The notes under the pieces are model-generated. The model saw nothing but the letters and a program-made list of their open reading frames with translations. It was not told the DNA's origin and did not search any database. Below, in pieces: positions 9,593 to 34,672 of a DNA stretch of 39,224 nucleotides. Every line of letters begins with the position of its first letter. Positions within the stretch are counted from its first letter, which is position 1. The translations under genes were made by a program, and so were the position numbers. Origin of the DNA: Desulfobacula sp. (GTDB taxonomy: Bacteria > Desulfobacterota > Desulfobacteria > Desulfobacterales > Desulfobacteraceae); contig JAKIUJ010000017.1 in assembly GCA_021647625.1 (NCBI GenBank), positions 1-39,224 on the forward strand. Direction: 5' to 3'.

Positions 9593-10755
9593 AAAATTTT
9601 GACGTAATTATAATCGGTGCAGGATCTGTGGGCGTACCAACAGCCATGGCCCTTGCACAAAACAAATTGGATGTACTGGTCATTGATGCTTTGGCATCAC
9701 CGGGACAGGGCCAGAATAAAAAAGCCATCGGCGGTATCCGGGCAACCCATTCGGACAAGGGTAAAATATCCACCTGCCAGCGCAGTATAGAGATCTTTTC
9801 CACCTGGGAGAAGACCCATGGCGATAATATCGGCTGGATTCAGAATGGTTATAGTTTTCCTGCCTATACGGATGACGATGCAAACAAATTAAAAGATCTC
9901 ATGAAGGTCCAGAAATCATTTGACCTGGATATTGAATGGCTGACGTCTGCTCAATATGAAAAACTTGTTCCCGGAATCAACACCCAAGACCTGAAAGGGG
10001 CAACCTATTCACAAAAAGACGGCAGTGCCTCTCCTTTACTTGCCATCAATGCCTTTTATTTTAAAAGCATCGAGTATGGTGCCCGGTATCGGTTCAATGA
10101 AAAAGTCACCGCCATTACCATCGTCAAGACAAAGCAGATCACAGTCACAACGGATAAAGGCCGGTACAGGGCAGCCAAGGTGATCAATGCTGCCGGAAAC
10201 CATGCCAGGCAAATTGGAGAACTGATAGGGTTGGACTTTCCGGTAGCCCCGGACAGCCATGAAGGTGCCATCACAGAACCGGTTGAACGATTCTTCGGCC
10301 CCATGATTGTCGACATGCGGCCTTCACAGGATTCCGCCACACAGGATTCTGCCAACTACTATTTTTATCAGAACAATGAAGGACAGGTCATCTTTTGTTT
10401 GACCCCCAGGCATCTGATTAAAGGGACACAAAGCGAGTCAACCTCTGTATTTCTTCCCCAGGTGGCCAAACGCATGGTTTCCCTTTTCCCCAAGCTTGCC
10501 AACCTCAAGGTCAGACGGACCTGGCGGGGCCAGTATCCCATGACACCGGACGGTTTTCCCATCGTCGGCGCTATCAAAGAATATCCCAATTTTATCAATG
10601 CCGTTGGAATGTGTGGCCAGGGTTATATGCTGGGGCCCGGACTGGGTGAATTACTAACAAGAATTGTAACAGGTCAGTTGACAGATGATGATGAAGATGC
10701 TTTAAAACATTTTAATTTATATCGGGACTTTACCGGTCTCGAACAATTTAAATAG
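9589..10755 (+). CDS. FAD-dependent oxidoreductase, DAO family (HcnC/SoxB-like catalytic subunit)
   Basis: A 388-residue flavoprotein with an N-terminal FAD-binding motif GAGSVG (residues 10-15), then the DAO-family features KAIGGIRATHS and a C-terminal MTPDGFPIVGA...GQGYMLGPGLGELL. These enzymes oxidise a C-N bond of amino acids, sarcosine, proline, hydroxyproline or opines and hand electrons to a partner. Here the partner is the iron-sulfur flavoprotein whose gene overlaps it by ATGA. The product would be an imino or oxo acid, consistent with the aminotransferase further down the cluster. The stop codon TAG is also the first three bases of a repeat-family terminus. The substrate cannot be read from the sequence. 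Confidence 0.9.
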   Translation: MKNFDVIIIGAGSVGVPTAMALAQNKLDVLVIDALASPGQGQNKKAIGGIRATHSDKGKISTCQRSIEIFSTWEKTHGDNIGWIQNGYSFPAYTDDDANKLKDLMKVQKSFDLDIEWLTSAQYEKLVPGINTQDLKGATYSQKDGSASPLLAINAFYFKSIEYGARYRFNEKVTAITIVKTKQITVTTDKGRYRAAKVINAAGNHARQIGELIGLDFPVAPDSHEGAITEPVERFFGPMIVDMRPSQDSATQDSANYYFYQNNEGQVIFCLTPRHLIKGTQSESTSVFLPQVAKRMVSLFPKLANLKVRRTWRGQYPMTPDGFPIVGAIKEYPNFINAVGMCGQGYMLGPGLGELLTRIVTGQLTDDDEDALKHFNLYRDFTGLEQFK

Positions 10756-10769
10756 TGTTTGAACGAAAA
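10753..10769 (+). repeat. Solo terminus of the 148-bp palindromic repeat family
   Basis: TAGTGTTTGAACGAAAA is identical over 17 bp to the left end of the full repeat at 34502, and the identity continues 4 bp further upstream (TAAA). The rest of the element is absent. Its TAG is the stop codon of the DAO-type gene, exactly as at livK. Confidence 0.7.
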
Positions 10770-22400: not shown

Positions 22401-22525
22401 CATGAATAAAATAATTATGGGGTAAGTTATTTAATGTACCTTCCTTAAGATTTAATATAGGAAAATAAAAAATTTTATATTTCAATCTCAATGGGGGGAC
22501 ACCCTCGTTAGAGAGGATGATATCT

Positions 22526-28990: not shown

Positions 28991-29010
28991 CTTAGGAACG
29001 TACATTAAAT
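28991..29010 (+). repeat. 20-bp direct repeat, copy 1, at the transposase break
   Basis: CTTAGGAACGTACATTAAAT is identical to the copy at 29089-29108. It marks the point where the IS4-type reading frame ends. Confidence 0.75.
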
Positions 29011-29088: not shown

Positions 29089-29250
29089 CTTAGGAACGTA
29101 CATTAAATTAAGTACCCATAATTATTGCTTTTTTCGCCGTCTTCTGCGTTTCTCGTTGGGCACATAGCTAGTTATGCTTCCTCCTCGCGCCTTGAATACG
29201 ACAAAAACTTCTGCTAATTATGGGTACTTAATTTAATTCCAGTTCCTTAG
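29089..29250. repeat. Palindromic repeat element with 23-bp perfect terminal arms
   Basis: ATTAAATTAAGTACCCATAA begins the left arm (29102-29124), and its full 23-bp complement is at 29215-29237. Outside the arms, TTAGGAAC and its near-complement extend the pairing to about 29250. The interior is itself a loose palindrome centred near CATAGCTAGTTATG. Its left end repeats 28991-29010. It shares a GCGCCTT core with the 148-bp repeat family but is otherwise different. It looks like a MITE or REP-type element. Confidence 0.7.
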
Positions 29251-29525
29251 CTTAAAACGTCTATCGACAACAGGTCTTCTTTCAGGGGAATCAGGGTAAA
29301 CGCATTTAAACTTGGCATGAATTTTAATTCTTTGTTTTGCAGGTACTTATACAAAACGATAATTCCATTTGCGTTTACCTTCAAACCATAACTACCTGAA
29401 ATCATTAATATGGAAAAGTTACATGCGTTAGCCCTGTCAGGGGAATAGTCAGTATATGCAAAGATACGCCTATCATACCCTGTACGTCTAACATCATTAT
29501 CGAGCAATAAGATTGTTTTTTTCAT
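29247..29525 (-). CDS. Small protein of unknown function with an RRxGxDRR-like motif
   Basis: A 92-residue frame beginning ATG 12 bp after the PEP-CTERM gene on the same strand. Residues 13-20 (RRTGYDRR) and the following IFAYTDYSPDR recall the RRSGxDRR motif of short proteins in related bacteria. The remainder is not recognised. I see no clear ribosome-binding site. Its TAA stop lies inside the outer end of the palindromic repeat at 29089-29250, so the natural 3' end may have been replaced. It may be a partial or decayed gene. Confidence 0.45.
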   Translation of the reverse strand: MKKTILLLDNDVRRTGYDRRIFAYTDYSPDRANACNFSILMISGSYGLKVNANGIIVLYKYLQNKELKFMPSLNAFTLIPLKEDLLSIDVLS

Positions 29526-30632: not shown

Positions 30633-30753
30633 TCTCAGAAAATTATTATATACAAAAAATTAAACATAATTGAATAACATTCATCTTAATCCATCAAAAC
30701 AATCGCATGGCTGCGCTGTCAATTAAATATATTTCATGGACCGACTTCATAGG

Positions 30754-30914
30754 TAGTGGCTGACCGAAAACCCGTGTTTGGGCGAAAAGTTGCCCATATG
30801 CAAGGCGCAAGAAATGCTGAAACCGGAGTGTACTATAGTACATGAGGATTTCAGGATTTTGCAGCAACGAAGCAGATGGGCGCTGCCGACGGGTGAGTTT
30901 TCGTTCAAACACTT
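30754..30914 (-). repeat. Inverted copy of the 148-bp palindromic repeat family
   Basis: The reverse complement reproduces the 34502 element: AGTGTTTGAACGAAAACTC at one end, the central TGTACTATAGTACA, GCCCAAACACGGGTTTTC and TCGGTCAGCCACTA at the other. It is about 14 bp longer near the ACCCGTC side. The bases TAGGTAGT flank both ends, a possible target duplication. Confidence 0.75.
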
Positions 30915-31258
30915 AGGTAGTCAGGCGGAGGGGAGCAGGTGGGTGTTTCGACGGCGTTAAATGGGCATGGTCGCAGGAAGCGAAGAATGCTCATTTCCGC
31001 TTTCGTCTGGACACGAGGTTCAGACGAATTTAGCCGAAAAAGTGCATAGTTTATGGGCATATCAAGAAACTGAGCCCAAAAAAAGAAAGTCGGACCAAAA
31101 TAAGCCTTTGACCCTAAAAAAATCCCCCGAATTCTCTTTGGGGGAGGTCTACAAAAAAATAAGCGGTGGATTTGATTTTTTGGGGGTGCTTGACTTATGC
31201 ATTCAAATTGAATACGAAACAACTGATCTTTTGCCTTAACTCTTTTTGGAGGATGCCG
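30915..31258. other. 344-bp non-coding stretch before the sigma-54 activator
   Basis: No gene recognised. A minus-strand frame of about 105 codons crosses it but has no family resemblance and contains a minus-strand terminator, so I do not call it. Confidence 0.4.
31116..31145 (-). terminator. Rho-independent terminator on the minus strand
   Basis: Read on the minus strand, TCCCCC pairs with GGGGGA around an 11-base loop and is followed directly by seven T residues. No minus-strand gene ends nearby: the adjacent gene at 31259 runs the other way. Confidence 0.6.
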
Positions 31259-33232: not shown

Positions 33233-34504
33233 ATGAAGCACACCCAATTAAGCGTTTGTCTCACCCTTTTTGTTTCCATGTTTGTTTTTTTGTGGGCAGG
33301 CTCGGCATTTGCCGAAAAACCCATTGTTATTGGTGCGCCATTGTCGACCGCCTATCTATACGGCTGGGACGCCGAACGTGGTATGAAGCTGGCTATCGAT
33401 GAAATAAATGCTGCCGGCGGGGTCAATGTAAATGGCAAAAAAAGGCTATTTAAAATCGAAGTAATTGACACCCGGGATCTTGAGCCGGGTGTTCCGGTCT
33501 CCGAGGCATTGATGGCCCTTGAAAGATTAATTTTAAGCAAAAAAGCCGATTTCATCCTGGGCGGGCCCAACCGCTCTGAGGCCGCCCTTGCTGCATTGTC
33601 TTTGTTGTCCAAATATAAAAAAGTCTCCATTGTGACCAGTGGCGTGTTAACCCCGAAATATCATAAAACAATCGCTGCAAATTATGATAAATTCAAATAT
33701 GGTTTCAGGATTCACGGGGAAGCGGTTAATCTGATTGGTGAAATCATCGCCAATTTTGCTGATTTAAAAGAAAAATATGGCCTTACCAAGGTCTTTATCA
33801 TGGCCCAGGATGTCTCCCATGCAAGGGGTGCTGCCAAAGTCATGGGAAAAGTGGCCGGTTCAAAAGGATTTGAAATTACCGGAACTGAAATTTTCCCCAC
33901 AGGCACCACAGACTTTTCCATGGCTCTCTTAAAAGCCAAAGCCACCGGTACCCAGATTATCAATATCTGGATGGATATGCCTGAAAGCGCGATTCTTTTA
34001 AAACAATGGTATGATCTAAAGATACCTGCCCTACCATTTGGTTCCACACTCGCTGCTGCTGAACAACCCGGATTTTGGAAAGCCACAAAAGGCAAGGGTG
34101 AATACACCCTTTGTAATGTTGTAAATGCCGGAAATGCGCCATCTGATGCCACCGAATGGACCATGAAATTTTACAATGCCTATGCCAAAAAATGGGGTGT
34201 TGAACCCGAAGGCCTTGGATCATCCAGTTCTTACATGGCGGTCTATGTATTAAAAGATGCCATTGAAAGAGCAGGAACACTTAATTCGGACAAAGTGGTT
34301 ACGGCCCTTGAACAAACAGATATGATGGGTGTTTACGGAAGGCTCAGGTTTGATCCTAAAAGTCACCAGGTCATTGTTGCCAAAGATCCTAAAGACGGTG
34401 CTGTGGGTTCCATCCTCCAGTGGCAGGACGGCAAACGGGTGGTTGTGTATCCCAAAAGCATCGCCAAGGGGGAGATTCTGCTTCCGCCGTGGATGAATAA
34501 ATAG
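33233..34504 (+). CDS. livK: LIV-type ABC transporter substrate-binding protein
   Basis: A 423-residue periplasmic binding protein of the branched-chain amino acid (Peripla_BP_6) class. A signal peptide runs to about residue 27 (AGSAFA before EKPIVIG). The mature start IVIGAPLSTAYLYGWDAERGMKLAIDEINAAGGVNVNGKK is typical. AAGGAGA precedes the ATG. It is first in livK-H-M-G-F. The ligand need not be an amino acid: members of this class also carry aromatic and other carboxylates, and an acyl-CoA ligase follows the operon. Its TAG stop is the first three bases of a palindromic repeat that separates it from livH. Confidence 0.92.
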   Translation: MKHTQLSVCLTLFVSMFVFLWAGSAFAEKPIVIGAPLSTAYLYGWDAERGMKLAIDEINAAGGVNVNGKKRLFKIEVIDTRDLEPGVPVSEALMALERLILSKKADFILGGPNRSEAALAALSLLSKYKKVSIVTSGVLTPKYHKTIAANYDKFKYGFRIHGEAVNLIGEIIANFADLKEKYGLTKVFIMAQDVSHARGAAKVMGKVAGSKGFEITGTEIFPTGTTDFSMALLKAKATGTQIINIWMDMPESAILLKQWYDLKIPALPFGSTLAAAEQPGFWKATKGKGEYTLCNVVNAGNAPSDATEWTMKFYNAYAKKWGVEPEGLGSSSSYMAVYVLKDAIERAGTLNSDKVVTALEQTDMMGVYGRLRFDPKSHQVIVAKDPKDGAVGSILQWQDGKRVVVYPKSIAKGEILLPPWMNK

Positions 34505-34649
34505 TGTTTGAACGAAAACTCACCCGTCTGCGGCGTTGCTACGAAATTCTAAAATCCTCATGTACTATAGTACACTCCGGTTTCAGAATTCCTTGCGCCT
34601 TACATATGGGCAACTTTTCGCCCAAATACGAGTTTTCGGTCAGGCACTA
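34502..34649 (+). repeat. 148-bp palindromic repeat element (MITE/REP-like) between livK and livH
   Basis: The ends TAGTGTTTGAACGAAAACTC and, in complement, TAGTGCCTGACCGAAAACTC match at 17 of 20. As RNA, 19 of 20 end positions pair, two by G-U. Inside are GGCG/CGCC and AAATCC/GGTTT arms converging on the perfect palindrome TGTACTATAGTACA (34560-34573), plus a TGGGC/GCCCA side hairpin. The whole element is one long imperfect stem. It has no coding capacity. The opening TAG is the livK stop codon. Confidence 0.8.
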
Positions 34650-34672
34650 AATAAGATTGACGAATAAATAAA

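What the first reader, a model, noticed from the sequence alone, without database searches (positions are those of the whole stretch)
34502..34649. A dispersed 148-bp palindromic repeat family (three loci in 39 kb)
A full copy at 34502-34649, an inverted and slightly longer copy at 30754-30914 and a 17-bp solo end at 10753-10769 share the same termini and central TGTACTATAGTACA. Pairing of the ends includes G-U wobbles, which suggests the RNA fold is conserved as well as the DNA. No transposase is encoded, so this is a MITE or REP-like family mobilised in trans.
Basis: seen in the sequence. Interest (0 to 1): 0.7.

Follow-up and report, generated by a model that had tools for sequence, protein, structure and literature searches.

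The report
Mobile hairpin repeat with conserved tip
A short jumping DNA element that is too small to encode a transposase and folds into a hairpin is scattered through this marine bacterium's genome, and the tip of its hairpin is shared with repeats in very distant bacteria, including one catalogued elsewhere as a small RNA.

Summary
Confirmed: the palindrome and its inverted partner are real, with at least 41 near-full copies and 123 core sites (control 0) in the genome. Of 48 complete sites read, 28 have identical 6-bp flanks, mostly TANNTA (shuffled maximum 14); none lies inside an ORF of 100 aa or more. Three copies sit in another dispersed repeat whose unoccupied copies show the empty site gap-free with one six-mer. 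This is a MITE-like element, presumably moved in trans; no partner transposase was found.

The asymmetric tip S-CTCA-(5 bp)-NNNN-(5 bp)-CTCCG-S' occurs exactly in at least 111 genome stretches from five phyla. Ends and duplications differ between families (TA in Rhizobium), yet tip and arm pairs covary across taxa. Rfam sX9 coincides with the 3' half of such an element in Herbaspirillum, so this 'sRNA family' is at least partly a dispersed mobile repeat. RAYT-driven REP is disfavoured, and the G-U argument for RNA is not supported. What the tip does is unknown.

The parts
34498..34503 (.). left target-site duplication TAAATA of copy 1; with the first element base it forms the TAG stop (34502-34504) of the livK-like gene
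   Evidence: duplication statistics
34504..34647 (+). copy 1 of the element, 144 bp, too short to encode a transposase
34504..34519 (+). left terminal repeat GTGTTTGAACGAAAAC
34632..34647 (-). right terminal repeat GTGCCTGACCGAAAAC; a second, inner terminal-repeat-like copy lies about 18 nt inside
34556..34580 (+). conserved tip hairpin C-CTCA-TGTAC-TATA-GTACA-CTCCG-G; on the complement strand the internal loop reads CGGAG/UGAG
34648..34653 (.). right target-site duplication TAAATA
30750..30755 (.). target-site duplication TAGGTA of copy 2
30756..30912 (-). copy 2 of the element, 157 bp, with a 13-bp internal insertion shared by four other own-genome copies of the 36 aligned
30823..30847 (-). 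tip hairpin of copy 2
30914..30919 (.). target-site duplication TAGGTA of copy 2 (one extra T at 30913)
10749..10769 (+). solo left end with TAAATA, a remnant; supplies the TAG stop (10753-10755) of the upstream oxidoreductase ORF
29355..29425 (-). unoccupied copy of another dispersed repeat: the paralogous empty site for the element copy in L026 (71 nt gap-free, one TAGTTA)

Best explanation
The element is a non-autonomous, MITE-like DNA transposon. A transposase supplied in trans (inferred, not found) recognises the roughly 16-bp terminal repeats and inserts the 144-158 bp unit, usually at TANNTA, duplicating six bases (duplication and empty sites shown; a 4-bp reading ANNT with the element starting at A is not excluded at TANNTA targets, but one TAGCTT/TAGCTT site favours six). 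Copies are found only between genes among the sites read, often at a stop codon, because TA plus the element's first G makes a TAG (shown for both loci in this window). The interior is a long imperfect palindrome ending in a tip with an asymmetric internal loop. Across taxa the arms and the tip stem change in step while the loop letters stay fixed. I infer that the folded form, as single-stranded DNA or cruciform or as RNA, is recognised by something that many bacteria have. The element belongs to a wider class of sX9-type palindromic repeats that occurs in several phyla and whose ends seem to match different transposition systems.
For: Copy number. Identical 6-base flanks in 28 of 48 sites, shuffled mean 4.3 and maximum 14 of 10,000; 35 of 48 match at 5 or more of 6; none inside an ORF of 100 aa or more. 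Paralogous empty sites: the joined flanks of L026 (TAGTTA), L018 (TAAGTA) and L030 (TACTTA), keeping one six-mer, align without gaps over 71-74 nt to unoccupied copies of another repeat at up to 98.6, 95.9 and 90.5%. Element absent from the livK-livH spacer in nine of the ten relatives that could be read across it. Exact tip in at least 111 stretches, 2 viral contigs and E. coli with a compensated pair. Outer tip pair complementary in 94 of 101 flank sets, shuffled maximum 69. Listeria arm: 7 of 14 pairs changed on both sides, 99.1% of cells paired. sX9 overlap.
Against: No autonomous element with these termini was found: in the window and the 285 loci then held, no pair of ends 0.5-4.5 kb apart outside short elements. 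The DruA and Y1 loci lack the termini at up to 1 mismatch, though three DruA loci have a single 2-mismatch site; one of the two DDE_Tnp_1 genes runs off its contig, so only one side could be read. The own genome was not searched for every transposase family. The livK-livH spacers of relatives are too diverged to read that empty site base by base. Covariation in palindromes can also arise by quasi-palindrome correction without selection. sX9 matches only 4 of 16 tip-carrying genomes, none of them of this genus.
Confidence: 0.85

Rival explanations
1. REP/REPIN-like repeat moved by a RAYT (Y1 HUH) transposase that recognises the hairpin as single-stranded DNA.
For: Hairpin with conserved unpaired positions; high copy number; intergenic location. 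Y1 transposases occur in 11 of 18 genomes tested, the own genome included.
Against: Listeria, Rhizobium, Bacteroidales and Tannerellaceae genomes with 6, 25, 14 and 39 tips gave no Y1 match at E 0.001. There are 6-bp duplications with base-exact empty sites. The unit is 144 bp, not the 20-40 bp given for REPs (PMC3733652, abstract).
Confidence: 0.04
2. It is a family of small RNA genes (sX9 type) acting in trans; the repeats are amplified sRNA genes.
For: Rfam sX9 covers the 3' half of such elements. The literature reports expression changes of sX9 genes in Xanthomonas under copper (PMC10924375, passages).
Against: Target duplications, empty sites and terminal repeats define a transposon, not an sRNA gene. 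Both window copies fall far below the sX9 gathering score (18.7 and 15.1 against 44 bits), and no copy in the own genome reached E 0.001 (150 of 269 candidates scored). Transcription was not testable here.
Confidence: 0.06
3. Host-domesticated terminators or mRNA 3'-end stabilisers kept because they help neighbouring genes.
For: Strong fold (z -5.7 and -5.0); many copies start at a stop codon.
Against: No orientation or tail-to-tail bias: configurations 14, 12, 11, 10 and one undetermined. Not present at livK-livH in nine relatives.
Confidence: 0.05
4. It is a MITE family, but the cross-phylum covariation is not selection on a structure: arms are kept equal by quasi-palindrome correction (one arm copied onto the other), and the shared tip reflects horizontal spread only. 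This rival concerns the inferred role of the tip, so its odds overlap with the best explanation.
For: Arms of young copies are nearly invariant. Patchy distribution: 6 of 117 class-sample genomes have the exact core; in a phylum sample 5 of 148 match the looser pattern, 4 non-own hits against 3 control hits, only one of the 4 fully complementary.
Against: Correction should also erase the asymmetric CTCA/CTCCG loop, which persists while tip stem and arms change. The searches required those loop letters, so how often the loop is lost was not measured; one relative has a variant loop (L275).
Confidence: 0.25

Closest known systems
Bacterial MITEs (as described in PMC5896051, passages: small, terminal inverted repeats of 4-30 bp, TA at termini, stable stem-loops)
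   Same: Size, inverted termini, target duplication, no room for a transposase, intergenic, hairpin.
   Different: Six-base TANNTA duplication here; a tip shared across phyla between families with different ends; no partner IS found.
Rfam sX9 (RF02228), Xanthomonas sRNA
   Same: The sX9 model begins at the tip stem (AUGUAC...GUACACUCCGG) and covers the 3' half of such elements; it is the best-scoring Rfam family for both window copies.
   Different: The window copies are far below its threshold. sX9 is catalogued as an sRNA, not as a mobile palindrome, models only half of the palindrome, and lies on the strand that folds less well here.
Pseudomonas fluorescens R-family intergenic repeats (PMC2718517, passages)
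   Same: Hairpin-forming intergenic repeats, some proposed to be MITEs; R178 has an internal inverted repeat and occurs in all three strains.
Yersinia YPAL / RU-2 (168 nt)
   Same: Palindromic, intergenic, high copy.
   Different: The RU-2 sequence printed in PMC2759123 lacks the tip motif on both strands.
REP elements with RAYTs
   Same: Dispersed extragenic palindromes.
   Different: Target duplications and length differ, and no Y1 transposase was found in four tip-rich genomes.
E. coli BoxC
   Same: Dispersed extragenic repeat in E. coli.
   Different: BoxC is a C/G-rich triplex motif with a different sequence (PMC4666352, passages).

Membership tests
MITE (non-autonomous DNA transposon) | terminal inverted repeats | tested here: met
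   GTGTTTGAACGAAAAC / GTGCCTGACCGAAAAC; 251 hits, control 1
MITE (non-autonomous DNA transposon) | target-site duplication | tested here: met
   28 of 48 identical 6-mers, shuffled mean 4.3, maximum 14; base-exact paralogous empty sites for three copies
MITE (non-autonomous DNA transposon) | many copies, insertion polymorphism | tested here: met
   livK-livH copy absent in nine of ten readable relatives, not base-exact
MITE (non-autonomous DNA transposon) | autonomous partner with the same termini | tested here: inconclusive
   none found; 332-contig draft, one candidate gene cut by its contig end, and not every transposase family was searched
REP / RAYT | 20-40 bp palindrome with a RAYT (Y1) transposase | tested here: not met
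   144 bp unit; no Y1 match in G119, G120, G122, G123
Rfam sX9 RF02228 | score at or above the gathering score of 44 bits | tested here: not met
   18.7 and 15.1 bits for the window copies; met in Herbaspirillum, 57.4 bits
YPAL / RU-2 | sequence of the 168-nt repeat | tested here: not met
   no tip motif in the printed sequence
DruA (PF14236)-type transposon | DruA gene between these termini | tested here: not met
   no DruA match in G000; 14 of 14 loci in relatives without termini at up to 1 mismatch, three with one 2-mismatch site

The most novel reading that the evidence does not exclude
The tip (S'-CGGAG-stem-NNNN-stem'-UGAG-S on the more stable strand, possibly closed by tandem G-A pairs) is a functional nucleic-acid module carried by many unrelated MITE families with different ends and different target duplications (TA against TANNTA), hence moved by different transposases. 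It spreads between phyla because a widely conserved bacterial factor acts on the folded strand. Rfam sX9 and the E. coli pyrH-frr hairpin are members of the same class.
Probability: 0.35. Interest if true: 0.85.

Novelty: new variant of a known kind. Interest (0 to 1): 0.62.

Why it matters
It would turn a widely annotated bacterial 'small RNA' family into part of a cross-phylum class of mobile hairpins. PMC9029176 lists sX9 among the 20 most prevalent sRNAs (passages), so sRNA catalogues and prevalence counts might need correcting. It would also pose a testable question: which conserved factor recognises a hairpin tip that stays the same while everything around it changes.

Tried and rejected
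Partner searches that failed: PF01609 in the own genome (2 hits, no termini at up to 2 mismatches in the stretches read, one gene cut by its contig end); PF01797/Y1 (20 loci without termini at up to 2 mismatches); PF14236/DruA; Rhizobium termini (70 hits: in that listing I saw no pair 0.5-5 kb apart in which neither end belongs to a short element; 15 elements read); inverted end pairs 0.5-4.5 kb apart in the window and the 285 loci then held (none). The IS630 beside the P. amygdali copy is an independent insertion with other ends. A plasmid search with the window element found nothing.

Literature: ten searches used. None of the capped listings showed a paper that links sX9 with a mobile element or describes the tip motif across phyla. 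The library is partial and most subscription papers are missing. I recalled the E. coli RSA repeat (152 nt, 6 copies) as a possible name for the E. coli hairpin but could not verify it. BoxC was considered and rejected. The Bordetella BRE (PMC3110155, section 14 read) prints no sequence in that section and was not tested. The original sX9 paper was not held.

Dropped rows: the first duplication scripts mis-set one end, because an inner terminal-repeat-like copy acts as a decoy; decoy rows were dropped and double-counted palindromic sites merged, and only the figures are used. Alignment A1 holds 36 of the 50 rows (12 of other lengths and both rows of L052 left out). The Listeria count uses 8 of the 12 Listeria tips printed; the other 4 have other arms. 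One search timed out without output and was replaced.

Full report
OBSERVATION. Both window copies and the solo end exist as described. With the duplications taken into account, copy 1 is 34504-34647 between two TAAATA. Copy 2 is 30756-30912 in the other orientation, between two TAGGTA with one extra T. The solo end at 10749-10769 keeps TAAATA plus 15 bases of the element. The core is absent from 100 shuffles of the window at up to 3 mismatches.

COPY NUMBER. The window lies in an unnamed draft genome of 4.27 Mb in 332 contigs. A blastn search scored 40 of 201 first-look candidates and gave 43 rows: 41 near-full copies and 2 weak reverse-strand rows over the same places, so 41 is a lower bound. 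The terminal motif GTGYYTGAMCGAAAAC at up to 1 mismatch occurs 251 times against 1 for the backward control. The core CTCATGTACNNNNGTACACTCCG at up to 2 mismatches occurs 123 times against 0. The genus is most likely Desulfobacula: records with the same element carry that name, and a contig of the same-genus genome G109 has the same length, 39728, as a contig of Candidatus Desulfobacula maris. This is an inference.

ENDS AND INSERTION. Complete copies were read only in the window and the loci then held for this genome, 48 distinct sites. The six bases on the two sides are identical in 28 and match at 5 or more of 6 in 35. When right flanks are shuffled among sites the mean is 4.3 and the maximum of 10,000 shuffles is 14. 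The usual form is TANNTA; at such targets a 4-bp reading (ANNT, element starting at A) fits equally, but one TAGCTT/TAGCTT pair (L029) favours six. Three copies (L026, L018, L030) lie in another dispersed repeat. Their joined flanks, keeping one six-mer, align without gaps over 71-74 nt to unoccupied copies of that repeat, at up to 98.6% (window 29355-29425), 95.9% (L042) and 90.5% (L060) identity. These are base-exact empty sites. None of the 48 sites lies inside an ORF of 100 aa or more. Gene arrangements show no bias (14, 12, 11, 10 and one undetermined), and many copies begin at a stop codon. In 25 relatives searched with the joined livK-livH flanks, 12 had a match and 10 could be read across: nine have no element in the spacer (2-124 nt), and one (L275) has a different hairpin with a variant tip there. 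Those spacers are too diverged for a base-exact comparison.

STRUCTURE. Both copies fold better than 200 dinucleotide shuffles (z -5.7 and -5.0). Among 36 aligned own copies (89% identical) only 3 of 42 predicted pairs have changes on both sides, so covariation within this genome is weak, as expected for young copies. G-U cells on the given strand (15 in 9 pairs plus one fixed pair) hardly exceed A-C cells (10 in 10 pairs), so wobbles do not point to an RNA on that strand. The given strand has the lower folding energy in only 1 of 36 own copies and 9 of 112 copies elsewhere. On the complement the internal loop reads CGGAG/UGAG, which could form tandem G-A pairs (inference). Against this, sX9 is catalogued on the other strand.

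SPREAD. They include Desulfobacula and Desulfospira, Pseudomonas, Rhizobium, Herbaspirillum, Shewanella, Listeria, Paenisporosarcina, Bacteroidales, Tannerellaceae and a Silvanigrellales MAG: the phyla Thermodesulfobacteriota, Bacillota, Bacteroidota and Bdellovibrionota (looked up) and Pseudomonadota (taxonomy lines). Several of these are MAGs, the only Silvanigrellales record included. The spread is patchy: 6 of 117 genomes in a class sample, own included, have the exact core. In a phylum sample 5 of 148, own included, match the looser pattern; the 4 non-own hits stand against 3 control hits, and by reading only one of the 4 is fully complementary. E. coli has a version between pyrH and frr, K-12 included, with a compensated C-G pair in the tip stem. 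A distant query matched part of it in 3391 of 5426 E. coli genomes; an E. coli query at E up to 0.1 matched 5375 of 5426 at a median of five places.

TIP MOTIF. In 22 genomes taken from the core hits, the looser pattern SCTCATNNNCNNNNGNNNACTCCGS gave 145 hits in 20 genomes, control 0. By hand count of that listing, all 145 have complementary outer letters (G-C or C-G), although the pattern also allowed G-G and C-C, and 143 have all three free stem pairs complementary. Over 101 distinct flank sets the outer pair is complementary in 94, shuffled mean 55.3 and maximum 69. On 20 tips (19 distinct) that I picked by hand to show the distinct stems, the two imperfect ones included, the covariation score is 0.575 against 0.136 shuffled (0 of 500), with 5 of 6 pairs changed on both sides; because of the picking, the unselected counts above carry more weight. 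In eight Listeria elements, on a structure I drew from one of them, 7 of 14 arm pairs are changed on both sides while 99.1% of arm cells pair. The loop letters CTCA and CTCCG were required by the searches, so their conservation is shown only by how many distant genomes hold them exactly, not by a free count. Quasi-palindrome correction could produce arm covariation without selection, but it does not explain a stable asymmetric loop.

DIFFERENT ENDS, SAME TIP. Fifteen Rhizobium elements have ends GGGTGTGTGGACATTC and flanks TA (14 of 15 left, 15 of 15 right), with no longer duplication visible; TA could also be part of the element. The element here has other ends and a six-base duplication. If those duplications are read correctly, the shared tip does not depend on one transposition system.

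KNOWN NAME. Of 18 loci scanned against Rfam, one, the Herbaspirillum locus, matched sX9 (RF02228) on the element, at 57.4 bits, starting in the tip and running through the 3' arm. Among 16 tip-carrying genomes sX9 matches 4 at E 0.001: 26 places in the Herbaspirillum genome, 12 of them over the cut-off, and 1, 1 and 4 elsewhere below it; none in the own genome and none in 14 control genomes, E. coli included (capped candidates). sX9 is the best Rfam family for both window copies, but far below threshold. It is listed as an sRNA of Xanthomonas and among the 20 most prevalent sRNAs (PMC9029176, passages). The reading that follows is that this RNA family is, at least in part, one half of a dispersed mobile palindrome; the Xanthomonas copies themselves were not examined.

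MOBILISER. Not found. No Y1 transposase matched in four tip-rich genomes. The DruA loci lack the termini at up to 1 mismatch; the two DDE_Tnp_1 loci lack them in the stretch read, one being cut by its contig end. No pair of termini encloses a longer unit in the window and 285 loci held.

VERDICT. A MITE-like family, well supported, with a cross-phylum hairpin tip whose function is open.

Noticed in passing
window 28991-29010, 29089-29124 with 29215-29250, and 22425-22445: A second repeat family (CTTAGGAACGTACATTAAAT..., 36-nt arms 86% complementary) is present in the window; a similar stretch abuts a solo end in L048.
   Followed up: no
window 29310-29425; also L002, L018, L042, L046/L047, L060, L185: Another dispersed repeat (TTCAGGTAGTTACGGTTTGAAGGTAAACGC...) recurs in the own genome and has served as an insertion target of the element at least three times (L026, L018, L030).
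   Followed up: partly
window 34502-34504 and 10753-10755: In both places the TAG stop codon of the upstream gene is made by TA of the target plus the first G of the element.
   Followed up: partly
L275 (relative G033) about 1890-2060: A different palindromic element with a variant tip (CCTCAACATACTTAATGTATGCCTGCGG) sits in the same livK-livH spacer as window copy 1.
   Followed up: partly
L236 3013 and L241 785 (E. coli): A tip hairpin lies between pyrH and frr in E. coli, K-12 included; the feature tables fetched show no annotation there.
   Followed up: partly
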